Positions 8,583-29,171 of a stretch of DNA of 64,000 nt are shown piece by piece. The translations under genes were made by a program, and so were the position numbers. Source of the stretch: Agromyces sp. CF514 (lineage in GTDB: Bacteria; Actinomycetota; Actinomycetes; Actinomycetales; Microbacteriaceae). The stretch is taken from the NCBI RefSeq assembly GCF_900113185.1, contig NZ_FOZD01000001.1, positions 186,001 to 250,000 on the forward strand, given 5' to 3'. The first letter of the stretch is position 1; the number at the start of each line of letters is the position of its first letter. The notes under the pieces are model-generated. The model worked only from the letters and a program-made list of their open reading frames with translations, was not told the DNA's origin and did no database searches.

Positions 8583-8611
8583 GACTAACCCACCTCCTTC
8601 GGACTCAAACG

Positions 8612-8630
8612 GCTGCAGGATCTCTGCAGC
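8612..8630 (-). promoter_or_regulatory. Hairpin in the rpsF leader
   Basis: Perfect 7-bp arms GCTGCAG and CTGCAGC with a 5-base loop lie 30 bp upstream of the rpsF start. rpsF leaders in several bacterial groups carry a structure bound by the S6:S18 complex for autoregulation. Whether this hairpin is that element is not shown by the sequence. Confidence 0.35.
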
Positions 8631-8693
8631 AGGAGGGTTGTGCATACGCCGCCCGAGGAGGCCTCACATTCGAGGCGCACGGGCAACCTTGAC

Positions 8694-8699
8694 AGTCTA
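8694..8699 (-). promoter_or_regulatory. Probable -10 box of the rpsF operon
   Basis: On the minus strand TAGACT (plus strand AGTCTA) lies about 112 bp before the rpsF start. It fits the actinobacterial TAnnnT -10 consensus and would give a leader of about 105 nt containing the hairpin at 8612-8630. No clear -35 was identified. Confidence 0.4.
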
Positions 8700-8755
8700 A
8701 CGGATGCTGCGTGCCGACGCCATTCGAGTGCATGGACCCCGTTCGGTGCGCCGGG

Positions 8756-10195
8756 TCAGGCGTCGCGGGCCGCCCACCATGCGCGCAGGCGCTGCTCGGC
8801 GACATCCGCTCCGATGGGGCCCTCGTCGAGCCGCACCTCGAGCAGGTACCGGTAGGCCTCGCCGACGACCGGTCCGGGCGGAATGGCGAGCAGGCGCATG
8901 ATGTCCGCACCGTCGAGTTCGGGGCGCACGGCTGCGAGCTCCTCCTCTTCGGCGAGCACGGCGATGCGCTCCTCGAGGTCGTCGTAGGCGAATCCGAGGC
9001 GGTCCGCCTTGCGCCGGTTGCGGGTCGTGACATCCGCCCGGGTGAGGATGTGCAGGCGCTCGAGCTGGTCGCCCGCGTCGCGCACGTAGCGTCGAACGGC
9101 CGAGTCGGTCCACGCGGCATCCGCATAGCCGAAGAACCGCAGGTGCAACTCGATGAGGCGCGAGACCGCGGCGATCGTGTCGTTGTCGAAGCGCAGCTCG
9201 CGCAGTCGCTTGCGGGCGAGCTTCGCGCCGACGACGTCGTGGTGGTGGAACGACACCGCACCGCCCGACTCGAGGCGGCGCGTGTTCGGCTTGCCGATGT
9301 CGTGGAGCAGCGCCGCGAGGCGCACGACGAGGTCGGGGGAGTCGAGGTTGCCGCGCGAGACCTCGTAGTCGATGGCCTGGTCGAGCACGGTCAGCGAGTG
9401 CTCGTAGACGTCCTTGTGGTGGTGGTGCTCGTCGACCTCGAGGCGAAGGGCCGGCACCTCGGGCAGCACGCGCTCGGCGAGGCCCGATTCGACGAGCAGG
9501 CGGATGCCGCCGCGGGGCGACGACGTGAGCAGCAGCTTCGAGAGCTCGTCGCGCACGCGTTCGGCCGAGATCCGGTCGATCTCGGGAGCGAGGGTCGTGA
9601 GCGCTGCACGCGTGCCCTCCTCGACCTCGAACCCGAGCTGCGCCGAGAAGCGCGCGGCGCGCAGCATGCGCAGCGGGTCGTCGCCGAACGAACGCTCGGG
9701 CGCCGCAGGCGTGCGCAGCGTCTGCGCGAGCAGGTCCTCGACACCGCCCGTCGGGTCGACGAGCTCGAGCTTCGGAAGCCGCAGTGCGAGCGAGTTGACC
9801 GTGAAGTCGCGGCGCACGAGGTCGCCCTCGAGGCTGTCGCCGAAGACCACCTCGGGCTTGCGCGACGCACCGTCGTAGGCGTCGGCGCGGTAGGTCGTGA
9901 TCTCGACCTGCTCGCCCGCGATCTTCGCGCCGATCGTGCCGAAGGCGCGACCGATGTCCCAGTGCGCCTCGGCGATCGGCTTCACGACCGCGAGGATCTC
10001 GTCCGGCGTGGCGTCGGTCGTGAAATCGAGGTCGTTGACCGCCCGGCCGAGGAACGCGTCGCGAACCGGGCCGCCGACGAGGGCCAGCTCGAACCCGGCC
10101 CGCTCGAACGCCGAGGCGAGCTTCGAGACCGTCGGCGACGAGGCGAGCTCGCCCAGACGTTCAAGGGCTGCCGCGACACTCTGCATGTGCTCCAT
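8756..10195 (-). CDS. cca: CCA tRNA nucleotidyltransferase
   Basis: A 479-residue enzyme that adds or repairs the 3' CCA of tRNAs. The nucleotidyltransferase head domain has LVGGPVRDAFLG at about 39-50 and metal-binding aspartates in NDLDFTTD at 54-61, followed by the RRDFTVNSLAL segment. An HD-type domain occupies the C-terminal half, with LLHDIGKP and HHHDVVGAK. Two starts are possible: ATG 10195 (MEHMQS) or ATG 10186 (MQS), the latter behind GGAG. It is the Rv3907c (pcnA) equivalent in the conserved order, facing away from DUF6049-murJ. The three tRNAs in this window lack an encoded CCA, so this activity is needed. Confidence 0.95.
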   Translation of the reverse strand: MEHMQSVAAALERLGELASSPTVSKLASAFERAGFELALVGGPVRDAFLGRAVNDLDFTTDATPDEILAVVKPIAEAHWDIGRAFGTIGAKIAGEQVEITTYRADAYDGASRKPEVVFGDSLEGDLVRRDFTVNSLALRLPKLELVDPTGGVEDLLAQTLRTPAAPERSFGDDPLRMLRAARFSAQLGFEVEEGTRAALTTLAPEIDRISAERVRDELSKLLLTSSPRGGIRLLVESGLAERVLPEVPALRLEVDEHHHHKDVYEHSLTVLDQAIDYEVSRGNLDSPDLVVRLAALLHDIGKPNTRRLESGGAVSFHHHDVVGAKLARKRLRELRFDNDTIAAVSRLIELHLRFFGYADAAWTDSAVRRYVRDAGDQLERLHILTRADVTTRNRRKADRLGFAYDDLEERIAVLAEEEELAAVRPELDGADIMRLLAIPPGPVVGEAYRYLLEVRLDEGPIGADVAEQRLRAWWAARDA

Positions 10196-10322
10196 GTTAA
10201 GCGGGACGGATGCCGCGGGCGGCTCGCTCGCTCGACCGCACCGCCCGCGGGCCTGCCGGCCTGCTGCATCCGCTCCTCGGCGAAGCTGTGCAAACACGCA
10301 CAATCGGGGGCCTGCCACGCCG

Positions 10323-10328
10323 TAGAAT
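10323..10328 (+). promoter_or_regulatory. -10 box of the DUF6049-murJ operon (leaderless start)
   Basis: TAGAAT ends six bases before the ATG at 10335, so the transcript should begin at or next to the start codon. No Shine-Dalgarno motif is present, which supports leaderless translation. Confidence 0.6.
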
Positions 10329-10334
10329 CCCTGC

Positions 10335-12857
10335 ATGGCCGACTCGAATGCTGCGCGTCGTCGCGCCCGCAGGCGAGTCGGTTCCACCGGCGCGACAGGC
10401 GTGCGCCGCACCCTCATCGTCACTGGCGCCTGCGTCGCCGCCGCGACCCTGGCGCTCCTGCCGTTGAGCACGGCCACCGATGCCGACGGGCCCGTGCACG
10501 ATTTCCGAGACGTGCTGTTCGGCACCGAGAACGCCACAGATCCAGAGGCCGCCTCCGACGCCGGCGCTTCGAGCAGCACGTCCATGCTGCGCTCGGTCGA
10601 CCCCGAAGGCGGAGCCGAGGGCGTGGTGCTGAGCATCGCGCCGACGCTGGCCTCGACCTTCACGCTCGGCACCGCAGAGACGCCGGTCACGATCATGGTC
10701 GAACTCGAGAACCGCAGCGGGGGCTCCGTCGCCGCTGGCGAGGTCCGCCTCGTGCGCGCGTCGTCGTCGATCGACGACGACGCCGAGCTCGACGCGTGGC
10801 TCGCCGCCCCGAGCACCGGCTCCGGATTCGGGTCGAGCAGCATCGTCCTCGGTGAGGCGGCATCGCGGCCCGTCGCGGCCGGCGGCACCACCCAGGTCGC
10901 GTTTACGGTTCCCTCCTCGGCGTTCGCCGACATCGCGGGCTCGCCGGTCATCGGCATCGGCGCCGAACTGGTCAGCGGCGAGACGGTCACCTCGACGGGC
11001 ACCGCGTCCTTCGCGAACACGGCCGTCCCCTCGACCGGCACGCCGCTCGCCATGGTCGCGCCGATCACCGTGCCGGCGTCGTCCTCGGGCCTCATCGCCA
11101 GCGAAGACCTCGAGGCCTGGACCTCGGCCACCGGGCTGCTCACGCGACAGCTCGACGCGCTCGACGGCCGCCAGATCGCGATCGGCATCGACCCCCGGAT
11201 CATCGCCTCGATCCGCGCGCTCGGCACCTCCGCCCCGCCGAGCGCCACCGAATGGCTCGGCCGTCTCGCCGCCGTTCCGAACGAGACGTTCCCCCTGGCC
11301 TACGCCGACGCCGACCTCGCGCTGCAGGCCCAGATCGGGCTCTCCGCACCGCTGCTGCCGACTTCGTTCGCCGACGTGCTCGATCCCGACCTGTTCGTCG
11401 CCGACCCGACGACCGAGCAGGGCACCGGGCAAGACGACGCCGAAGCCGCGGCGGCCGAGCCGACCGACCCGACGGCGACCCCGACTGCGCCGCCGACAGA
11501 CGGCGCCCCGACCGTTCCGAGCACCGAAGAGCTGCTCTCCTGGTCGTACACGCGCACCGACATCGCGTGGCCGGGCGACACCACCGTCTCCACCGGCAAC
11601 CTCTCGTTCTTCAACGCCGCTGGACTCACGACCACGGTGCTCGACGCCTCGAACGTCGCCCCGCTCGCGGGGGCCCGCGCCTCCGCCCTGGTCGACGGCG
11701 GCACCGCGATCGTGTCCGACGCGGAGATCACCGAGGCCATCCGGGCCGGGTCCATGGCCGAGACCGACCTCGAGCTGCGCGACGCCGCAGGCGAGGTGCT
11801 GGCACGCGCTGCGCTCGACGCGGACCCGAGCTCCGCGAGTGCGCCGCTGCTCGCGACGTTCGGCCGCCAAGACGGCCAGGTCTCCGACCGCCTCGGCGAC
11901 CTGGTCGATGAGATCGCGACGAACCAGTTCGTGACGCTCACCGGGCTCGCGCAGGCCATCGGCGCCCCGCCGACGCCCCGCACCCTGGTCGACTCGAGCG
12001 AGGCCGAGTCCCGCCGTGCGCTGGCCTCGGACATGGTGTCGGTCGAGACCGAGGTAGACGAGTTCGCCACGGTGCTCGACGAGCCGACCGACCTCACCGG
12101 ACCGGTTCGCCGAGACCTGCTCGCCCTGCTCGACGTCGGCTGGCTCGACCGGTCCACCGAGTGGAGCAGCGCATCCTTCGACTGGCTGGCCGCGCAGCAC
12201 GACGTCGTCGACTCGATCTCGGTCGTGCCGAGCAGCACCGTCCTCGTCGTCGCGAGCGAGACCGGCATCCCGATCACCGTGCAGAACGCCTCGGTGTTCC
12301 CGGTCACGGTCGAGGTCGTCGTCGAGCCCTCCAACGGGCGCCTCGTCGTCGACGAGCCCGTGCAGGTGACCGTCGAGCCCGAGTCCCGCAACACCGTGAG
12401 CGTGCCCGTCGCGGCCGGCGTCGGCAACGGAGAAGTGCGCCTCGCCGTGTCCCTGCGCTCCGTCACCGGCGTATCGGTCGGCTCGACGGTCGTGATCACC
12501 GCCGACGTCCGCGCCGATTGGGAGGGGCTCGGCGCGACGTTCCTCGCAGGCGTCCTCGTGCTCGTCTTCGGCATCGGCCTCTGGCGCAACATCCGCCGCC
12601 GTCGCCGTGCACGGGCAGCGGATGCCTCGACGGCCAAAGGCGCCTCGACCGACGCCGACCCGATCGTCCCCGCCGACGAAACCAGTGACGAGCCCACGCA
12701 CCAACCCGGCGACGAACCCGCCGCGGAGCCGAGCGGCGAAGCGGCGGCGACCGAGGCCGATGCCGAGACGCACGCCGGGGCACCCGCACCGTCCGCGGGT
12801 ACCGCGGCCGTCGACCCTTCCGAACCCACCGAAACGAGCGAACGCCGCGATGACTGA
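10335..12857 (+). CDS. DUF6049 family membrane-anchored protein
   Basis: An 840-residue protein of the family encoded just upstream of murJ in actinobacteria (Rv3909 equivalent). After a short arginine-rich cytoplasmic start there is one hydrophobic segment at about 26-46 (signal peptide or anchor), a large extracytoplasmic region of about 690 residues, and a second helix near 733-753 followed by RNIRRRRRAR and an 85-residue acidic, Pro/Thr-rich cytoplasmic tail. A Pro/Thr linker (TDPTATPTAPPTDG) splits the outer region near residue 385. Function is not established; the constant link to MurJ suggests a role in envelope assembly or MurJ control. The stop overlaps the murJ start by 8 bp. Confidence 0.88.
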   Translation: MADSNAARRRARRRVGSTGATGVRRTLIVTGACVAAATLALLPLSTATDADGPVHDFRDVLFGTENATDPEAASDAGASSSTSMLRSVDPEGGAEGVVLSIAPTLASTFTLGTAETPVTIMVELENRSGGSVAAGEVRLVRASSSIDDDAELDAWLAAPSTGSGFGSSSIVLGEAASRPVAAGGTTQVAFTVPSSAFADIAGSPVIGIGAELVSGETVTSTGTASFANTAVPSTGTPLAMVAPITVPASSSGLIASEDLEAWTSATGLLTRQLDALDGRQIAIGIDPRIIASIRALGTSAPPSATEWLGRLAAVPNETFPLAYADADLALQAQIGLSAPLLPTSFADVLDPDLFVADPTTEQGTGQDDAEAAAAEPTDPTATPTAPPTDGAPTVPSTEELLSWSYTRTDIAWPGDTTVSTGNLSFFNAAGLTTTVLDASNVAPLAGARASALVDGGTAIVSDAEITEAIRAGSMAETDLELRDAAGEVLARAALDADPSSASAPLLATFGRQDGQVSDRLGDLVDEIATNQFVTLTGLAQAIGAPPTPRTLVDSSEAESRRALASDMVSVETEVDEFATVLDEPTDLTGPVRRDLLALLDVGWLDRSTEWSSASFDWLAAQHDVVDSISVVPSSTVLVVASETGIPITVQNASVFPVTVEVVVEPSNGRLVVDEPVQVTVEPESRNTVSVPVAAGVGNGEVRLAVSLRSVTGVSVGSTVVITADVRADWEGLGATFLAGVLVLVFGIGLWRNIRRRRRARAADASTAKGASTDADPIVPADETSDEPTHQPGDEPAAEPSGEAAATEADAETHAGAPAPSAGTAAVDPSEPTETSERRDD

Positions 12858-18641: not shown

Positions 18642-19625
18642 TCACACGCCATCGAGCTCCTCGCCCAGATCCGTGAGAATCCGGCGGAGGTCCTGCACTG
18701 TGGCGAAATCGATGCTGATCTGGCCTTTTCGCGCACCGAGCGCGATCCTGACACGCGTGTTGAGTCGATCGCCCATGCGTGTGGCCAAGTCATCGAGAAA
18801 GTCCTGTCGCTTGCCGGCGGCCGGCTTGATGCGCGGCGCAGTCGGAGCCTGCGTCGTCGCGGCGGCTTCGGCCGCTCGAACGGAAAGTTCCTCGTTCACG
18901 ATCTTGTCTGCGAAACGCTGCATGGTCGTGGTGTCGCCGCCGGTCGCCAGGATCGCCCGGGCGTGACCCGCGCTCAAGACGCCTGCTGCGACTCGAAGTT
19001 GCACCGGCTCGGGGAGCTTCAGGAGCCGGAGGGTGTTGGAGATCTGAGGACGCGACCGACCGATGCGCGTCGCGAGCTCCTCTTGGGTGATGCCGAAGTC
19101 CGCGAGGAGTTGCTGATACGCGGATGCCTCTTCGAGCGGATTGAGCTGCGAGCGGTGCAGATTCTCGAGGAGGGCATCGCGAAGCATGTCCTCGTTCGCA
19201 GTGTCCTTGACGACCGCGGGGATCGAGTCGAGGCCGGCTGCCTTGGTGGCCCGAAGTCGGCGCTCGCCCATGACGAGCTCGTACTTGCCTGCCAGGTCGG
19301 GGTGGGGCCGCACGACGATCGGCTGGAGCACGCCGAACTCGCGCACGGAGTGCACGAGCTCCGCGAGGTCGTCGGGATCGAACACACTTCTCGGCTGCAC
19401 CGCGTTGGGAACGATGTCTTCGGGGTTCAGTCGGGCGAGGTGAGCCCCGGGAACAGCGAGCAGTTCGGATTCGACAGCCTGCTCGATCACGGCAACAGAT
19501 GCCACGGGGGCTGCATCGGCACCCGGGAAGAAGACATCGACCGGTCGCGCGGCCCCTTCCTGAGTGTCGCTGGAGGGAATGAGCGCCCCGATGCCCCGCC
19601 CGAGACCAGTTCGCTTCGTGGCCAT
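18642..19625 (-). CDS. parB: Chromosome partitioning protein ParB
   Basis: A 327-residue CTP-dependent clamp that loads at parS and spreads. It starts MATKRTGLGRGIGALIPS, the usual ParB N-terminus that contacts ParA. The CTP-binding domain includes QPIVVRPHPD and the GERR motif at 120-123. The helix-turn-helix EELATRIGRSRPQISNTLRL lies near 176-195, with a C-terminal dimer domain. The ATG overlaps the parA stop by one base (TGATG), so the two are co-translated. Five perfect parS sites lie in the next 5.2 kb upstream. Confidence 0.98.
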   Translation of the reverse strand: MATKRTGLGRGIGALIPSSDTQEGAARPVDVFFPGADAAPVASVAVIEQAVESELLAVPGAHLARLNPEDIVPNAVQPRSVFDPDDLAELVHSVREFGVLQPIVVRPHPDLAGKYELVMGERRLRATKAAGLDSIPAVVKDTANEDMLRDALLENLHRSQLNPLEEASAYQQLLADFGITQEELATRIGRSRPQISNTLRLLKLPEPVQLRVAAGVLSAGHARAILATGGDTTTMQRFADKIVNEELSVRAAEAAATTQAPTAPRIKPAAGKRQDFLDDLATRMGDRLNTRVRIALGARKGQISIDFATVQDLRRILTDLGEELDGV

Positions 19626-21658
19626 CAGATTCCTTCCTTCTGCGCTTCGAGTGCCGCGATCGCCGCTCGCTGGGCGATCTCCGCGGCGGCCTCACGGTAC
19701 GACAGTGACCCAGATGATGAGTAGTCGTAGCTGATGACGCTCTGGCCGTAGCTCGGCGCCTCGGAGACACGCACTGAGCGGGGGATGATCGTCTCGAGTG
19801 TCTGCTCGGGGAAGTGGTCGCGCACTTCCTGCGCCACCTGCTGCGCCAGATTCGTCCTCGAGTCGTACATCGTCAAGAGGATGGTCGAGAGTCGCAGCTC
19901 AGGATTCAGGTGCTTCTCGATCAGCTCGATGTTGCTGAGCAACTGCGACAGACCCTCGAGCGCGTAGTACTCGCACTGGATCGGGATCAGAACCTCACGG
20001 GCTGCGACGAAGGCGTTGATCGTCAGCAGGCCGAGCGACGGCGGACAGTCGATGAAGACGTAGTCGTACGGACGGCTCATCTGCGCGAGGTGCTTGTCGA
20101 TCGCGCGACGCAAGCGCTGCTCGCGGGCAACGAGTGAAACGAGTTCGATCTCGGCTCCGGCGAGATGGATGGTGGCCGGCACGCAATCGAGGCGTTCGTG
20201 TTCGGTCGACGGTCGAACGACCTCGGCGAGTTCGAGATCGGCGACCAGCACTTCGTACACGCTCTTCTGATCCGAACGGTGATCGACGCCCAAGGCTGTC
20301 GAGGCATTGCCTTGGGGGTCGAGGTCGACCACGAGCACGTGCGCTCCCGACCGGGCGAGTGCTGCAGCCAGGTTCACCGCCGTGGTCGTCTTGCCGACTC
20401 CGCCCTTCTGGTTCGAGATCGTGAAGACACGCGTATTCGCCGGCAGCGGCAGCACCGCGGTTTCGAGAGCGATGCGCCGACGAGTCTCGTCGGCAATCTG
20501 GTCAGCCAGGGGAGTTCCTCCGTATTCGGAAGGCGTTTCACGTGAAACGCCCGGTGCATGCGTGCCCTGTGACTGCGGCAGCAGGACTGCCGGCACAGGC
20601 GCGAGTGGTGAGTGAGGGTCGACGAGTGCGCCGCCCAGAGTCTGCGGGTCGACCTCAGGGTCGTGAAGTTCGTCAGTCGTTTCACGTGAAACGTCGACGA
20701 CCAGAGCGTTCGGTGTGACATCGAGTGCCTCAGGGACGATGGCGTCTTCGTCCACGGGGCTGGTGTCCACGGAACTGGCGTCCACGGAACTGGCGTCAAC
20801 AAGGGTAGTCTCGACAGGCCCAGAACCAGGGAAGGGCGCGGGCTGCCTCTGATCGCCGACGACAGAGGACTCAGATTCGGTGGCGTTGGGAGTGGACTCG
20901 ATGAGCGACTCATCGACCAGTGCGCTCTCGTCGCGCTGCTCGGTGTTGGTCTCCACTGTGACTGCGGTCGGGGCAGTGGGGGGGAGTGTCGTGCTGAGCT
21001 CGACGTACTCGACTGTCGCTGCGCTGCGGGCCACCGCCGGAGTTGAGTCCGCCGCAGCGCGGGCGGAATGAAGCGAGCTGACCGTCTCGACTGCGGCGTC
21101 ACCAACGATCTCGCGGATGATGTCCTCGAGCAGGCGGTCCGGTTCGCTGGTGGAATGTGGAACGGAGACCGGCGCCGACTGCACCGGCACATCGGAATCA
21201 GCGAACGCGGCAGCCGTGGCCGCATCCCAGTCATACGAGGCTTCACGTCGTCGCTGCGAGGCGGGTTCCGTCGGCTCGTCCGCAGCGGAGTCAGTGGGCC
21301 CCGTTGCGGTTCCAACCGCGGGTGCCGCCGGAGCTGTCGAGTCGCGGTCGTGCGCTGACGGGACTGCAAGCGCAGGGCCGACACTCGGCGCAACGCTGTC
21401 GCGCGAAGGTGGGGTCGCATCGGGCTGTCGCTGCCAGACGGGCGTCGCTTGAGTGGAAGGTGCGGCGGCGGGCGGTGAGGTGACCGTCCAGGGGGCGGCC
21501 CCTGTCACGTCGGTCGGACTCGATGGAGGGGATGAGTCCAGGGGTTGCGGCACAGGTTGATCCGAGTTCGTTCGAGGCGTGATTGGTTCATTCTGGGAGA
21601 CCGGCTCTGGCTGCGGTCGACGCCGATGGAACCATCCGCGTCCTCCGCCCTGCGCCAT
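19625..21658 (-). CDS. parA: Chromosome partitioning ATPase ParA with long N-terminal extension
   Basis: A 677-residue protein, far longer than the usual 260-330. The ParA/Soj ATPase occupies about residues 408-665: deviant Walker A KGGVGKTT at 418-425, VVDLDPQGNAST, and VFIDCPPSLGLLTINAF. The first 407 residues are Pro/Ser/Thr/Ala/Glu-rich with no recognised domain, include a VDASSVDASSVDTSPVDE repeat, and hold two VSRET segments that are exactly the parS sites at 20535 and 20679 read in this frame. A GGAGAG motif seven bases before ATG 21658 supports the long start, and there is no internal Met before the ATPase. ParA uses ATP-driven nucleoid binding to move ParB-parS. Confidence 0.95.
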   Translation of the reverse strand: MAQGGGRGWFHRRRPQPEPVSQNEPITPRTNSDQPVPQPLDSSPPSSPTDVTGAAPWTVTSPPAAAPSTQATPVWQRQPDATPPSRDSVAPSVGPALAVPSAHDRDSTAPAAPAVGTATGPTDSAADEPTEPASQRRREASYDWDAATAAAFADSDVPVQSAPVSVPHSTSEPDRLLEDIIREIVGDAAVETVSSLHSARAAADSTPAVARSAATVEYVELSTTLPPTAPTAVTVETNTEQRDESALVDESLIESTPNATESESSVVGDQRQPAPFPGSGPVETTLVDASSVDASSVDTSPVDEDAIVPEALDVTPNALVVDVSRETTDELHDPEVDPQTLGGALVDPHSPLAPVPAVLLPQSQGTHAPGVSRETPSEYGGTPLADQIADETRRRIALETAVLPLPANTRVFTISNQKGGVGKTTTAVNLAAALARSGAHVLVVDLDPQGNASTALGVDHRSDQKSVYEVLVADLELAEVVRPSTEHERLDCVPATIHLAGAEIELVSLVAREQRLRRAIDKHLAQMSRPYDYVFIDCPPSLGLLTINAFVAAREVLIPIQCEYYALEGLSQLLSNIELIEKHLNPELRLSTILLTMYDSRTNLAQQVAQEVRDHFPEQTLETIIPRSVRVSEAPSYGQSVISYDYSSSGSLSYREAAAEIAQRAAIAALEAQKEGI
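20535..20548. other. parS site 1 (inside parA)
   Basis: A perfect GTTTCACGTGAAAC core, the bacterial parS consensus; the palindrome extends to 20 bp here (20532-20551). It lies in the coding sequence of the ParA N-terminal extension, where it encodes VSRET. Confidence 0.95.
20679..20692. other. parS site 2 (inside parA)
   Basis: A perfect GTTTCACGTGAAAC core 144 bp from site 1, read in the same codon phase, so it again encodes VSRET in ParA. Confidence 0.95.
20748..20792. repeat. 15-bp tandem repeat inside parA
   Basis: Three tandem copies of a 15-bp unit around GTCCACGGAACTG, with a decayed fourth copy, encode the VDASS/VDASS/VDTSP repeat in the ParA extension. The period is a multiple of three, so the frame is kept. 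Confidence 0.8.
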
Positions 21659-21868
21659 GCCGAACTCTCCAAACCTGATCCGTCATTCCCCACGACCCGG
21701 TGCCCCACCCTGCCAGACCCTCGTTGCCGAGGCGCCAGACAGAGTCAAGCTTAACTGTCAGCACCGACGTCGATCGACGGATCGCGGCGGATTCGCACCT
21801 TCAAGGCCCCGAGACGAACGGATGGCTCTGTGGTGCGGGTCGAGTGCGATGCGTCGATACAACCTTCC

Positions 21869-21882
21869 GTTTCACGTGAAAC
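21869..21882. other. parS site 3 (upstream of parA)
   Basis: A perfect GTTTCACGTGAAAC core 211 bp upstream of the parA start, in the gene-free island and near the expected parAB promoter. Confidence 0.95.
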
Positions 21883-21968
21883 GAGCCGGCCTCATCGCAA
21901 ACTCCGGGCGCACCGACACCGGCACCTTGGCTGTCCTATCCATACAGAATCGTCGTCCAAACAGATTT

Positions 21969-22032
21969 GTCGGCTCGTCGGTTTGTCGGCTCGCCGGTTC
22001 GTTGGCTCGCCGGGTCGCCGGCTCGCCGGACG
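21969..22032. repeat. 8-bp tandem array, eight units
   Basis: Eight consecutive octamers of the pattern G(T/C)CGGCTC: GTCGGCTC, GTCGGTTT, GTCGGCTC, GCCGGTTC, GTTGGCTC, GCCGGGTC, GCCGGCTC, GCCGGACG. Copies have diverged by one to three bases while keeping the 8-bp phase. Not coding. Confidence 0.75.
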
Positions 22033-22224
22033 TTTCGACTCGCCGGCGCCTCCGCCCGTCAGCGCATCGTCCGTCAGTGCGTCGCCGGTCGATGCATGGC
22101 TCCCTTGGCGCACGGCTCCATCGGTTCATTGGATGCTCGCTCGGTTCAGGGGAGTGAGCGTCAAGGACACCGTGGTCGCCAGCGAGGTGCGCGCCTAGCA
22201 GGCGCCAGAGTGCTCGCAGCCTGG

Positions 22225-22528
22225 CCCTACAAGCCCTACAGCCCTACAGCCCTACAGCCCTACAGCCCTACAGCCCTACAGCCCTACGAGACCTACGAGA
22301 CCTACAGCCCTACAGCCCTACAGACCTACAGCCCTACAGCCCTACAGCCCTACAGCCCTACAGCCCTACGAGACCTACGAGACCTACGAGACCTACGAGA
22401 CCTACGAGACCACGAGACCACGAGACCTACGAGACCACGAGACCTACGAGACCTACGAGACCACGAGACCACGAGACCTACGAGACCTACGAGACCTACA
22501 AGACCTACAAGACCTACAAGACCTACAA
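22225..22528. repeat. Composite 8/9-bp minisatellite, 36 units
   Basis: A head-to-tail array of 36 short units built from a few variants: CCCTACAG (8 bp, runs of six, two and four), ACCTACGAG (9 bp), ACCACGAG (8 bp) and ACCTACAAG (9 bp, at the right end). Variants are grouped in blocks, so the array grew by local duplication. Mixed unit lengths keep no reading frame, so it is not protein-coding. The minus strand has GGG every eight bases in the CCCTACAG blocks (GGG with CTGTA spacers), a canonical G-quadruplex pattern. Confidence 0.92.
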
Positions 22529-23059
22529 ACGCATTCCGTCGGCCAGGGTGACCACCTGTCCACACGCAGAGGACGACGGCGCTCCCAGTCGTAGCTGTCA
22601 TGGCACGAACAGCGCATCTCGCCTTGTCGCCTGCGGCCCTCCGTTCAAGCGACCACGTGTTGCGGACCGCCGACGCGCGCACGCTTCCGGCCCAGTCGGC
22701 CGAGTGTCCCACCGAGCAGCTTGGCGTAGCTCGCTCTTGCACCGCGCTCGAGTCGATCCCCACTCGCCGCAGCTCGCCTCGGCCCCTGGAACGAGACCGA
22801 AGCCACCACCCAGCCTCAAGCGACTGGGGACGGACTCCATCTCTCCTTGTTCGCCTTGGGTCGAGCTGTGACGACGAACGTGGTGTGCGATGATCCCCGG
22901 ACGTGTTGCCCACATCTGCAGTTGGAGCGGCGGCGGCAACCACGACAACTCATCGACGTCAACGTATCGAGCGCGTTCAGTGAGTGGAGGGCAGAGCACG
23001 TGCATGCAGCCGCATCGCCGCCGTGTCGCGCCAATATCCCTCACGCAACACCCGACTGC

Positions 23060-23073
23060 GTTTCACGTGAAAC
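23060..23073. other. parS site 4 (in the gene-free island)
   Basis: A perfect GTTTCACGTGAAAC core, flanked by C on the left and A on the right. It lies 1,191 bp from site 3, in sequence with no gene. Confidence 0.95.
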
Positions 23074-24038
23074 ATCAGATGCGGCGAATGTCTCTTTCGT
23101 TGGTGTCGAACCCTCACGGTGAACCCGCGATTGGCCGTACTGCCAGAGGAAGGCAGACCGGCACGAGGATGCGGTCCGATGCAAGCAGGTTGTCGTCCTG
23201 AGTACATCCGGCAGTGGCGATCGGTTGGAACGAGCACGCCAGGGTGGGCGAAGCCCCGCCGAGCAGAGCAGGCCAGCGCGCGGCGGACACCCAAGCCCAC
23301 GACCACGCCCACGCCCAGCAAAGCGAGGCGAGCAAGACGGCGCTCAACGGCGCGGAGGGGAATCGACGGCTGAACCCGTCGAACGGCCTGCTGAAGACCA
23401 GCCTCGAAGCCGAAGCAGCCCACCGAGCGACGGGCACCGGATCGCCGCTGATTGCCCGCGGCTCCAAGCGACGCGAACCCACTCCACACGTGGGCGCCCG
23501 TCGGTGCAGCAGTGCCAGTGTCGAGCGTCGAGAGCTGCCCTCAACACGAAGGCAGTATGGTCGCGTCGGCCAAGACCCATGCATGAAGGCTCCGTGCGAG
23601 CCAGAACCATGATCGCACCAGCCTGAACCTCGCGTACCGGCAAGTGCTCGGCTCGATCGCACGACCATGTTGCTCGGCTCGACCAGACGAGACATCCAGG
23701 CCGTCCCTCCGATTTGCGGGTCGGCGCGCGCAATTCGGTCGACCCATTGGTCGTCGCAGAGGTGGTGCGCAGCGCAAACAACTCATCACTTGGAGCCCGG
23801 GACCACCGCCACACACAGACCAGGCAGGCGTTCATGCCGATTGGATCTCTCTCAGAACTCCGGCATGATCCACGCGCGGGGTCGTCCGACAGCCGATGCC
23901 TCCCGAACTCGAAATGGCGAAGCCTTGAAAATCGCGACCAATGCACCGTGCCGATCATCGACCTGGCGTTCAGAGCACGGATCCCAAGGCGCGGGTCCGG
24001 GCGCTCGCTACTGATACGCCGAACGGTGGGTGAAACGA

Positions 24039-24074
24039 CTTCGGGCGGCGCACCAACTGGTGCGCCGCCCGAAG
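24039..24074 (-). terminator. Terminator after rsmG
   Basis: Perfect 17-bp arms (24039-24055 and 24058-24074) with a 2-base centre, followed on the minus strand by TCGTTTC. It ends the rpmH-to-rsmG transcript 25 bp after the rsmG stop, so parA-parB needs its own promoter. Confidence 0.88.
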
Positions 24075-24099
24075 GGAGACTGGCTCGGTCGAGTCGGCT

Positions 24100-24777
24100 T
24101 CAGCCGCTGGTGACCCGAGCGCGAAAGACGCGGGTGATCTCGGTACCGTGATCGCCGCCGAGCTCCAACACCTCGGGGTCGATGACGCGATACTTGCGGA
24201 ACACCTTGTCGGCGGCCCCGATCTCGCCTGCGACTCCGGCGCCCTTGAGGAGCACGAACTCCCCGCCGGGCTTGAGCAGGGGAGCGGTCACGGGAACCAG
24301 GGTGCGCAGCGCACTCACCGCACGGGCGGTGACCTGATCGAACTGGTGCTTGAAGCCTGAATCTTCAGCGCGAGCGCGCTCGACGACCACGTTCTCGAGT
24401 CCGAGTTCGCTGACCTGACGTGACAGCCAATCGACCCGGCGTTCCATGGGCTCGATCAGCGTGAACGAGACATCGGGCCGGATGATCGCAAGCACGATGC
24501 CGGGGAGGCCAGCACCCGAACCGACATCCGCAACTCGTCCGGGCCGCAGCAGGGGAGCGACCAGTCCTGAATTCACGATGTGCCGCGTCCAGAGACGGGG
24601 GAGTTCGAGCGGCCCGATGAGGCCCAACTCCTCGCCGTGGCGGGCGAGGGAGTCGGTGAATCGGCGGCCGAGTTCGAGGTGGTCGCCGAAGACTGCGGCC
24701 GCGGAGGCGGGCTCGACCTCGAGCGTCGCGATCGTCGAATCTTCGCCCCGCTCCGGGGTCGTCTGATCTGAGGTCAT
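24100..24777 (-). CDS. rsmG: 16S rRNA (guanine-N7)-methyltransferase
   Basis: A 225-residue SAM-dependent enzyme that methylates N7 of G527 (E. coli numbering) in 16S rRNA. The SAM site VADVGSGAGLPGIVLAI lies near 82-98, preceded by LWTRHIVNSG and followed by VTARAVSALRTLVP. Loss of this enzyme is a known route to low-level streptomycin resistance in other bacteria. There is no Shine-Dalgarno motif: a parS palindrome fills the 17-bp gap from the jag stop. It is the last gene of the rpmH-rnpA-yidD-yidC-jag-rsmG series. Confidence 0.97.
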   Translation of the reverse strand: MTSDQTTPERGEDSTIATLEVEPASAAAVFGDHLELGRRFTDSLARHGEELGLIGPLELPRLWTRHIVNSGLVAPLLRPGRVADVGSGAGLPGIVLAIIRPDVSFTLIEPMERRVDWLSRQVSELGLENVVVERARAEDSGFKHQFDQVTARAVSALRTLVPVTAPLLKPGGEFVLLKGAGVAGEIGAADKVFRKYRVIDPEVLELGGDHGTEITRVFRARVTSG

Positions 24778-24778
24778 C

Positions 24779-24792
24779 GTTTCACGTGAAAC
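24779..24792. other. parS site 5 (between jag and rsmG)
   Basis: A perfect GTTTCACGTGAAAC core within a 20-bp perfect palindrome (24776-24795). It occupies the whole 17-bp gap between the jag stop and the rsmG start codon and overlaps both by one or two bases. Confidence 0.95.
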
Positions 24793-27301: not shown

Positions 27302-27740
27302 TCTTCTTCTCCGACTTTCGGATCTCCGCGTCTCACAGGACGGTCGGCGTGAGCCGAACCGGGCGGTGACGGGAAAACTGGGTGCCCAAGCGGGCTGGGG
27401 TCAACTGATTAAAACTACGGCCTCGAGGCCACATGGTCAAACCGGGCGGTAATCGAATCGGCGTAGCGCAAACGAAAGAGTATCGCGCGATCCTTCGGAA
27501 TGCCTGTGGATAGACACGCCGGGAACGCCGAATCCCTCGACCGGCATTTGTCCACAGGCCCGACTTTCGCTACCGTTTGAGACCAGTTATCCCCAGCCTC
27601 GGGCGCGGAATCACGGGCTTCGCCCAGAATCTCCCCACAGCCAGTGGATAACACTGTGAATACTTCGCCTCGCGCCGCTCGCTCCGTCGTCCGGGGGGAC
27701 GACGAGCGGATTGACGAGAGCACCGAGATTGCGGGGAAAG
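27302..27740. promoter_or_regulatory. rpmH-dnaA intergenic region with DnaA boxes
   Basis: A 439-bp divergent promoter region. It holds a perfect TTGTCCACA at 27548-27556 (the actinobacterial preferred box), TGTGGATAG at 27505-27513, TTATCCCCA at 27587-27595 and AGTGGATAA at 27643-27651. Known bacteria use such boxes for DnaA autoregulation and, in some, as part of a bipartite origin. A TTGACC on the minus strand near 27400 may belong to the rpmH promoter. Confidence 0.75.
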
Positions 27741-29171
27741 ATGACCGAACAGCCCGTCGGGGACACGTGGGCATCCGTGCTCGATCGACTCTCCGAGGAC
27801 GCAGCGATCACGCCGATGCTGCAGGGCTTCCTCAGCCTGGTCGAGCCGAAGGGCATCGCCGGCGGCACGTTCTACCTCGAGGTGCCGAACGACTTCACGG
27901 CGACCATGCTGAACCAGCGCATGCGCGTGTCGCTCCTGTCGGCCATGAGCGTGATCGTCGATCCGGCCCCCGTGACCTCGTTCTACGTCGTCGTGAATCC
28001 CGAACTCGAGGAGACCCGTGCGCCTGAGCCAGAACCGCTCTCGCCTGCGACGCTGACCGCGGTCCAGGACCGCGTCGACCTGCCGGCCTCACCGCAGTCC
28101 GTGTTCGAGAACACCAGCCCCGACCGGCCGGGCGACACCCGGCTGAACCCGAAGTACGCCTTCGAGAGCTTCGTCATCGGCCAGTCCAACCGGTTCGCGC
28201 ACGCCGCGGCGGTCGCCGTGGCCGAGGCGCCGGCGAAGGCATACAACCCGCTCTTCATCTACGGCGACTCCGGCCTCGGCAAGACCCACCTGCTGCACGC
28301 CATCGGCCACTACGCGATGAGCCTGTATCCCGGCATCCGGGTTCGGTACGTGAGTTCCGAGGAGTTCACGAACGACTTCATCAACTCGATCGCCAACAAC
28401 CGCGGTTCGCTGTTCCAGCAGCGCTACCGCAACATCGACATCCTGCTCATCGACGACATCCAGTTCCTCCAGGGCAAGGCGGAGACGCAGGAGGCGTTCT
28501 TCCACACCTTCAACACGCTGCACGACCACAACAAGCAGGTCGTGATCACGAGCGACGTGCCGCCCAAGCACCTCACCGGCTTCGAGGACCGCATGCGAAG
28601 CCGCTTCGAGTGGGGCCTCATCACCGACGTGCAGGCGCCCGACCTCGAGACCCGCATCGCGATCCTCCGCAAGAAGGCGCAGTCCGAACGCCTGCAGGTG
28701 CCCGACGAGATCCTCGAGTACATGGCGTCGAAGGTGTCGAGCAACATCCGCGAGCTCGAAGGCACCCTGATCCGCGTGACGGCGTTCGCGAGCCTGAACC
28801 GCACGCCCGTCGACATGCCCCTGGTGCAGACGGTGCTGAAGGACCTCATCACCGACGACGCGGACAACGTGGTGGCGCCGGTCGACATCATCACCGCGAC
28901 CGCCGACTACTTCAAGCTCACGGTCGACGACCTCTACGGCTCGAGCCGCTCGCAGGCCGTTGCGACGGCACGGCAGATCGCGATGTACCTGTGCCGTGAG
29001 CTCACGAGCCTGTCGCTGCCGAAGATCGGGCAGCTGTTCGGCAACCGCGACCACACCACGGTGATGTACGCGAACAAGAAGATCTCCGAGCTCATGAAGG
29101 AGCGCCGGTCGATCTACAACCAGGTCACGGAGCTGACCGCGCGCATCAAGCAGACGAGCCGATACCGCTGA
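27741..29171 (+). CDS. dnaA: Chromosomal replication initiator protein
   Basis: A 476-residue AAA+ initiator. Domain I is at about 1-85, a Pro/Glu-rich domain II linker at about 90-130, and domain III has Walker [10 protein letters not shown] at 175-183 and Walker [11 protein letters not shown]. Domain IV carries the DNA-binding signature [18 protein letters not shown] 27741 follows GGGGAAAG and gives [10 protein letters not shown]; an in-frame codon at 27711 would add ten residues. DnaA boxes lie on both sides of the gene. Confidence 0.98.

What the first reader, a model, noticed from the sequence alone, without database searches (positions are those of the whole stretch)
21659..24099. 2.4-kb gene-free island wedged between rsmG and parA in an otherwise packed origin region
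The sequence shows no credible gene on either strand for 2,441 bp, while neighbouring gaps are mostly under 100 bp. In related genomes rsmG and parA are normally adjacent. The island contains two parS sites and two tandem arrays and is bounded by the rsmG terminator and the parA start. It may be a structured centromere-like spacer, a decayed insertion, or a site for a non-coding RNA.
Basis: partly seen in the sequence, partly recalled or inferred. Interest (0 to 1): 0.72.

Follow-up and report, generated by a model that had tools for sequence, protein, structure and literature searches.

The report
Gene-free centromere region in Agromyces
In this soil bacterium most of the sites that its chromosome-segregation machinery should grip sit in or beside a 2.4-kb stretch without genes, which relatives of its genus keep at the same place although its sequence is rewritten each time, much as a centromere would be.

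Summary
In detail: 21,659-24,099 has no credible gene, two perfect parS sites and two main tandem arrays. The genome is an Agromyces (Microbacteriaceae). The island is not peculiar to it: all 44 Agromyces loci measured have a gene-poor rsmG-parA spacer of 1.15-5.97 kb (median 2.66 kb). Position and kb-scale length persist while sequence turns over; against the window's nearest relatives only parS sites and about 50-170 nt next to parA stay recognisable. In 36 genomes 190 of 192 perfect parS sites lie in one block from the rsmG start region to the ParA ATPase domain, 123 of them in the spacer. The spacers are rich in tandem arrays. Most other Microbacteriaceae lack it (median rsmG-to-ParA-domain distance 243 nt in 141 genomes), but in 29 of the 141, in 19 genera, the distance is at least 1 kb, and these hold 105 of their 131 parS sites there. 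Distance and parS number correlate after phylogenetic correction. Best reading: a gene-free chromosomal centromere region, kept as a platform for loading and sliding of ParB. The layout is shown; the reason for it is inferred. Decayed gene and conserved RNA are not supported. Neutral expansion remains a live rival. My searches listed no paper that describes it.

The parts
21659..24099 (.). gene-free rsmG-parA spacer (the island)
21869..21882 (.). parS, perfect GTTTCACGTGAAAC, parA-proximal; 32 of 44 Agromyces spacers have a parS 140-300 nt upstream of the parA ATG
23060..23073 (.). parS, perfect, inside the spacer at a position that varies between species
20535..20548 (.). parS inside the parA coding region (read VSRET), 114 nt before the ATPase domain as in most Agromyces
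20679..20692 (.). second parS inside the parA N-terminal extension
24779..24792 (.). parS at the rsmG start; outer edge of the block
21969..22029 (+). tandem array, 8/16-nt unit
22226..22526 (+). tandem array, about 36 copies of an 8/9-nt unit, strongly strand-asymmetric
23290..23317 (+). minor tandem array, 6-nt unit
21746..21755 (-). promoter-like motif GTTAAGCTTG upstream of parA; the motif is present near parA in 34 of 44 Agromyces loci and was not found in the rest of the spacers
   Evidence: its role as a -10 element is inferred
21659..21705 (-). parA leader, the stretch alignable with nearest relatives (46-47 nt at 93-94% in two; 139 and 170 nt at 76% and 73% in two more)
24039..24074 (-). 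17-bp hairpin after rsmG, terminator-like; not shared by the genus
19625..21658 (-). parA, with about 408-aa low-complexity N-terminal extension before the ATPase domain
18642..19625 (-). parB
24100..24777 (-). rsmG (gidB)

Best explanation
The island is the gene-free core of the chromosomal centromere of Agromyces. Shown: nearly all perfect parS sites of the genome are gathered in one block from the rsmG start region to the ParA ATPase domain; the spacer in it is largely non-coding, keeps its place and a kb-scale length across the genus, loses its sequence quickly, and is rich in tandem arrays; in most species a promoter-like motif sits right before parA. Inferred: ParB-CTP clamps load at the scattered parS sites and slide over kilobases of DNA without genes, where RNA polymerase and transcription factors do not stand in the way, building the partition complex that ParA moves and that recruits condensin (SMC). 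Selection keeps the length and the parS sites, not the letters between, so slippage and duplication rewrite the filler.
For: 44 of 44 Agromyces spacers 1,151-5,971 nt against a median gene gap of 89 nt in 464 kb of this genome. 190 of 192 genome-wide perfect parS in the block in 36 genomes: 123 spacer, 40 ParA extension, 27 rsmG start region. Spacer codon score -0.10 against 0.28 (rsmG) and 0.39 (ParA domain). Turnover: spacer alignments of 16 close pairs 45-77% identical, shuffled pairs 41-45%; blastn of the window's spacer finds only parS, short repeats and the parA leader. Tandem arrays in 32 of 44 spacers, 6.1% of bases, against 0.4% and 0.3% in the two flanks and 3 of 44 simulated spacers, and 2.1% in 43 other gaps of this genome. 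Some repeated units carry parS (L077, L120). Partly anchored sites: parS 140-300 nt upstream of the parA ATG in 32 of 44, uniform placement mean 8.6, maximum 19 (the 140-300 range was chosen after seeing the positions). Repeated elsewhere: in 29 of 141 other Microbacteriaceae genomes, 19 of 83 genera, the rsmG-to-ParA-domain distance is 1 kb or more; these hold 105 of 131 genome-wide parS in it, against 23 of 68 in the 17 genomes with 500-999 nt and 11 of 44 in 14 fetched genomes below 500 nt. Independent contrasts: r = 0.45, p = 5e-7 with 116 tips; r = 0.46, p = 6e-5 with 72 non-Agromyces tips. ParB spreading is attenuated by a DNA-bound regulator in vitro and, as cited there, by RNA polymerase in vivo (PMC7053999, passages).
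Against: No binding, transcription or segregation data. Most Microbacteriaceae do without it: 88 of 141 have under 300 nt between rsmG and the ParA domain. ParB can bypass roadblocks, and that paper states that in vivo ChIP-seq shows no strong change near genes (PMC9242446, passages), which weakens the need for gene-free DNA. 12 of 44 Agromyces spacers hold an ORF with coding signal, so gene-free is not absolute. Length varies fivefold and 3 of 44 spacers have a single parS. One genome with a 6.9-kb gap has only 2 perfect parS (G132). The ParA coding extension is nearly as rich in arrays as the spacer (4.3% of bases), so array content does not single out the non-coding part. The rsmG terminator that would insulate the spacer is not genus-wide.
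Confidence: 0.6

Rival explanations
1. Neutral expansion. The region beside parS is not needed but tolerated: slippage and duplication of parS-bearing units lengthen it, ParB-covered DNA is a poor place for genes, and nothing selects its length.
For: Fast turnover, arrays with differing units, parS inside repeated units, length from 1.15 to 5.97 kb, ORFs with coding signal in 12 of 44.
Against: Bacterial deletion bias (general knowledge, not tested here) should remove it, yet none of 44 falls below 1.15 kb, and long distances recur in 19 other genera with parS inside.
Confidence: 0.27
2. A regulatory region of parA: the parS roughly 115 nt upstream of the promoter-like motif in the window lets ParB control parA transcription, and the rest is by-product.
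For: Partly anchored parS in 32 of 44 spacers and promoter-like motif in 34 of 44.
Against: Explains about 300 nt, not kilobases, and not the remaining parS of the block.
Confidence: 0.08
3. Decayed gene or inserted element.
For: Gene-free stretch in a packed region; some relatives carry single ORFs with coding signal in the spacer.
Against: No Pfam remnant in ten ORFs, negative codon scores, same place in the 44 loci measured and recurrent in other genera.
Confidence: 0.03
4. Locus of a structured non-coding RNA.
For: A strong 17-bp hairpin at 24039-24074.
Against: No Rfam family, no sequence shared with close species outside parS, short repeats and the parA leader, no such hairpin in most relatives.
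Confidence: 0.02

Closest known systems
Chromosomal ParABS centromeres (oriC-proximal parS clusters)
   Same: Same perfect 14-nt parS core, beside parA and parB and close to what I take from the sequence to be dnaA (27711-29171).
   Different: As far as I recall, parS sites elsewhere sit in genes or ordinary intergenic gaps; here nearly all are packed around kilobases of gene-free, repeat-rich DNA.
Corynebacterium glutamicum parS cluster
   Same: An actinobacterium with nearly all parS intergenic: 9 of 10 (PMC7083940, passages).
   Different: Its ten sites spread over 35 kb; here one block of a few kb between two genes.
Caulobacter crescentus parS cluster
   Same: Compact cluster about 8 kb from ori; ParB spreads up to about 2 kb around one parS (PMC5815017, passages), the scale of this spacer.
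   Different: Its parS sites lie within essential or high-fitness-cost genes (same passages).
Plasmid partition centromeres such as F sopC (recalled, not looked up)
   Same: Dedicated non-coding DNA beside the par operon.
   Different: sopC is a short array of identical repeats bearing the binding site; here parS are scattered (1,191 nt apart in the window) and the window's arrays lack parS.
Regional repeat-rich centromeres of eukaryotes (analogy only, recalled)
   Same: Conserved position and role with fast-changing repetitive sequence.
   Different: No homology; marked here by a conserved DNA site (parS).

Membership tests
Chromosomal ParABS centromere | Perfect parS palindromes | tested here: met
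   5 in the window, chance expectation 0.02; 5 in the whole genome, the same ones
Chromosomal ParABS centromere | Next to parA and parB, near the origin genes | tested here: met
   Pfam for ParA, ParB, RsmG, YidC; dnaA named from the look of the ORF at 27711-29171, no family search run on it
Chromosomal ParABS centromere | ParB binds and spreads there | not testable with these tools
   needs ChIP-seq
Gene-free centromere spacer (proposed) | Kept in position and kb-scale length across the genus | tested here: met
   44 of 44 loci, 1.15-5.97 kb; one further genome, G011, split between contigs and not measured
Gene-free centromere spacer (proposed) | Non-coding | tested here: met
   window spacer; genus mean score negative, but 12 of 44 hold an ORF with coding signal
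Gene-free centromere spacer (proposed) | Length itself is under selection | tested here: inconclusive
   retention and recurrence suggest it; no direct test
Tandem-iteron plasmid centromere | ParB sites repeated in tandem | tested here: not met
   two spacer parS 1,191 nt apart; the window's arrays have no parS. In two relatives, L077 and L120, a repeated unit does carry parS
Decayed gene or mobile element | Recognisable protein remnant | tested here: not met
   ten ORFs overlapping the island, Pfam
Known RNA family | Rfam match | tested here: not met

The most novel reading that the evidence does not exclude
A bacterial counterpart of a regional centromere: kilobases of transcription-free, satellite-like DNA selected for length and for scattered parS seeds but not for sequence, arisen repeatedly in Microbacteriaceae as a loading and sliding platform for ParB and SMC, with a co-evolved ParA that carries a long low-complexity arm.
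Probability: 0.38. Interest if true: 0.8.

Novelty: new variant of a known kind. Interest (0 to 1): 0.62.

Why it matters
How far ParB must spread from parS in a living cell, and whether genes and transcription hinder it, is an open matter. A family with lineages that have about 0.2 kb or up to about 7 kb of DNA at the same parS locus is a natural experiment. If length is selected, bacteria have dedicated centromere DNA whose sequence is free, a principle that I know only from eukaryotes.

Tried and rejected
Decayed gene: ten island ORFs against Pfam, none above cut-off (B12D at E 0.098 is noise). RNA family: none. Genus-wide terminator after rsmG: rejected, 2 of 44 with stems of 9 bp or more against 32 of 880 control windows. 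tblastx between spacers was uninformative because the shown output held only self-matches. My codon-based gene caller misses the ParA N-terminal extension, so I tested that separately: over 16 pairs, 75 of 134 indels are multiples of three against 124 of 563 in spacers, and 15 of 16 pairs differ most at third positions (my sums), so the extension is coding. The runner-up gap in the window (8583-10400) was a caller artefact; that stretch is among the 43 control gaps, the other 42 were not checked one by one.

In the family survey 3 of 150 genomes had no match and 3 were split between contigs; 60 of the 141 remaining were fetched: all 29 with 1 kb or more, all 17 of 500-999 nt, and 14 of the 95 under 500 nt (one per genus in handle order, not at random), so the fetched set and the tree over-represent long gaps. 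The first tree (117 tips) held one identical pair, L137 and L205; one search repeats it with 116 tips and without Agromyces, with the same outcome. The family distances run to the ParA ATPase domain and so include the ParA N-terminus (open frame of at most 247 codons in the 29 long cases); only in Agromyces was the parA start set. The promoter-like pattern and the 140-300-nt range were chosen after looking at these same sequences.

Full report
What is there. The interval 21,659-24,099 lies exactly between the start of parA (19625-21658, - strand) and the stop of rsmG (24100-24777, - strand); parB follows parA. The window is part of a 4.30-Mb genome (G000). Named close relatives are Agromyces allii (RsmG 87% identical in the matched part), A. 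salentinus and A. terreus (84%), so the genus is Agromyces.

No gene. The longest ORF in the island is as long as in shuffled sequence (204 aa, shuffle mean 202; but 5 of 150 aa or more against a mean of 2). Its 21 closed ORFs of 60 aa or more have negative codon scores (best -15, against +71 for rsmG), and ten ORFs that overlap it match no Pfam family above cut-off. Rfam has no match there at gathering threshold and one chance-like one at E 0.63. In 464 kb of the same genome the median gap between called genes is 89 nt and the stretch with the island is the longest (caller errors are told in Tried and rejected).

parS. The genome holds five perfect GTTTCACGTGAAAC sites and all lie in this window: two in the island, two in the parA coding region, one at the rsmG start.

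Genus comparison. I measured 44 Agromyces loci: the window, 35 genomes fetched by handle, 8 further named ones. The parA start was set by a conserved N-terminal peptide with the core RGWF, found by pattern in 43 of 44 (the 44th, L080, reads MAGWFQRRR and was set by hand). The spacer is 1,151-5,971 nt, median 2,662, in every one. Mean codon score is -0.10 in spacers, 0.28 in rsmG, 0.39 in the ParA domain. ORFs with coding signal occur in 12 of 44 spacers and differ between groups (from the look of the sequences, not tested: LD-carboxypeptidase-like, glyoxalase-like, phosphatase-like), so the spacer now and then takes in a gene.

Turnover. By blastn the window's spacer shares with other spacers only parS surroundings, short repeats and the parA leader (46-47 nt at 93-94% in two species, 139 and 170 nt at 76% and 73% in two more). 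Global alignments of 16 close pairs give 45-77% identity; six shuffled pairs give 41-45%, so many pairs are near the floor. Tandem arrays cover 6.1% of spacer bases (32 of 44 spacers) and 4.3% of the ParA extension (18 of 44), against 0.4% and 0.3% in the flanking regions, and occur in 3 of 44 simulated spacers; they cover 2.1% of 43 other gaps of this genome (369 of 17,595 bases). The units of the stronger arrays listed differ between species; I made no systematic search for shared units. In L077 a 222-nt unit and in L120 a 51-nt unit carry parS.

parS distribution. In 36 genomes with an intact locus, 192 perfect parS were found genome-wide: 123 in the spacer, 40 in the ParA extension, 27 in the rsmG start region (143 nt before to 21 nt after the start of the RsmG match), 2 elsewhere. 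Sites are partly anchored. In 40 of 44 loci one lies 114-123 nt before the ATPase domain, 37 of them at 114. In 32 of 44 one lies 140-300 nt upstream of the parA ATG, where uniform placement gives a mean of 8.6 and at most 19 in 5,000 trials (range chosen after the fact). A promoter-like motif GTTA(A/G)GCT(T/G)G lies 65-97 nt upstream of the parA ATG in 34 of 44 and was not found in the rest of the spacers. Within Agromyces, spacer length and parS number correlate weakly (Spearman 0.43, p 0.004).

Family comparison. Of 150 Microbacteriaceae genomes, 141 outside Agromyces could be measured (83 genera). The distance from the RsmG match to the ParA domain, which includes the ParA N-terminus, has a median of 243 nt, is under 300 nt in 88 and at least 1 kb in 29, in 19 genera. 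In those 29, 105 of 131 genome-wide parS lie in the gap and 3 of 29 have an ORF with codon score above 12; in the 17 genomes with 500-999 nt it is 23 of 68 (my sum), and in 14 fetched genomes below 500 nt 11 of 44. Named cases are Pseudoclavibacter sp. AY1H1 (7.2 kb), P. terrae (6.4 kb) and Gulosibacter sp. 10 (7.1 kb), with 4, 7 and 8 parS. Of 38 long gaps outside Agromyces scanned for tandem arrays, 17 have one, 3.8% of bases. On the tree the 44 Agromyces loci are monophyletic; long against short distance changes about 12 times by parsimony, and contrasts of log distance and parS number correlate (r 0.45, p 5e-7, 116 tips; r 0.46, p 6e-5 in the 72 non-Agromyces tips). The tree sample over-represents long gaps.

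Mechanism. Shown: position, near absence of genes, turnover, gathering of parS. Inferred: that the block is the centromere and that the spacer serves as a platform on which ParB clamps slide without meeting transcription. ParB spreading is attenuated by a DNA-bound regulator in vitro and, as cited there, by RNA polymerase in vivo (PMC7053999, passages), and in Caulobacter reaches about 2 kb from one parS (PMC5815017, passages), the scale seen here. Against: ParB can bypass roadblocks and ChIP-seq is said to show no strong change near genes (PMC9242446, passages), and most of the family does without the spacer. Neutral expansion with tolerance of ParB-covered DNA is the main rival.

Literature. 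'Microbacteriaceae' with 'parS', 'ParB' and 'chromosome segregation' gave no paper. 'Agromyces' with 'parS' gave 61 papers by word-start matching, 10 listed, none of these about segregation by title. Searches on intergenic parS, tandem repeats at centromeres, ParA extensions, parS distribution, roadblocks and non-coding centromere DNA listed none that by title and abstract start describes such a spacer (capped lists). Passages of seven papers were read, no paper in full. The library is open-access only, and the comparative parS survey cited in PMC5815017 was not read.

Noticed in passing
window 20438-21658 (- strand): ParA has a long low-complexity N-terminal extension in the genus (120-611 aa in 44 loci; A, P, S, E, T, D-rich, 0.5% K) that starts with a conserved basic-aromatic peptide (MAQGGGRGWFHRRRP in the window) and, in an alignment of 11 species, holds conserved inner motifs DWDAATAAAL and LLEDIIREIVGDAA; similar starts (RGWFHRK, RGWFHKK) occur in two other genera. 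It is coding but fast-evolving. It could be a tether to the pole; passages of PMC9298525 mention only 20-25-aa extensions in actinobacterial ParA.
   Followed up: partly
spacers of L049, L057, L059, L062, L063, L065, L066, L067, L068, L071, L085, L109: Single ORFs with coding signal, unrelated between groups by eye, have entered the spacer in some Agromyces lineages, as if it were a tolerant landing site.
   Followed up: no
window 22200-22649 and 23100-23549: The main array is strongly strand-asymmetric (AT skew +0.48, GC skew -0.35 over 22200-22499); a second stretch with A in excess of T on the + strand lies at 23100-23549, with only the minor array in it.
   Followed up: no
window 24039-24074: A perfect 17-bp hairpin just after rsmG; comparable stems are lacking at this place in 42 of 44 loci.
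   Followed up: partly
L129, L130, L140, L143, L149, L152: In short-gap Microbacteriaceae the first GTG of the parA frame lies inside parS itself (gtttcacGTGAAAC), so parS and a possible parA start overlap there; the true start was not tested.
   Followed up: partly
L225 (G085), rsmG-parA gap: A non-Agromyces 3.4-kb gap holds long tandem units of 180/366 nt.
   Followed up: no
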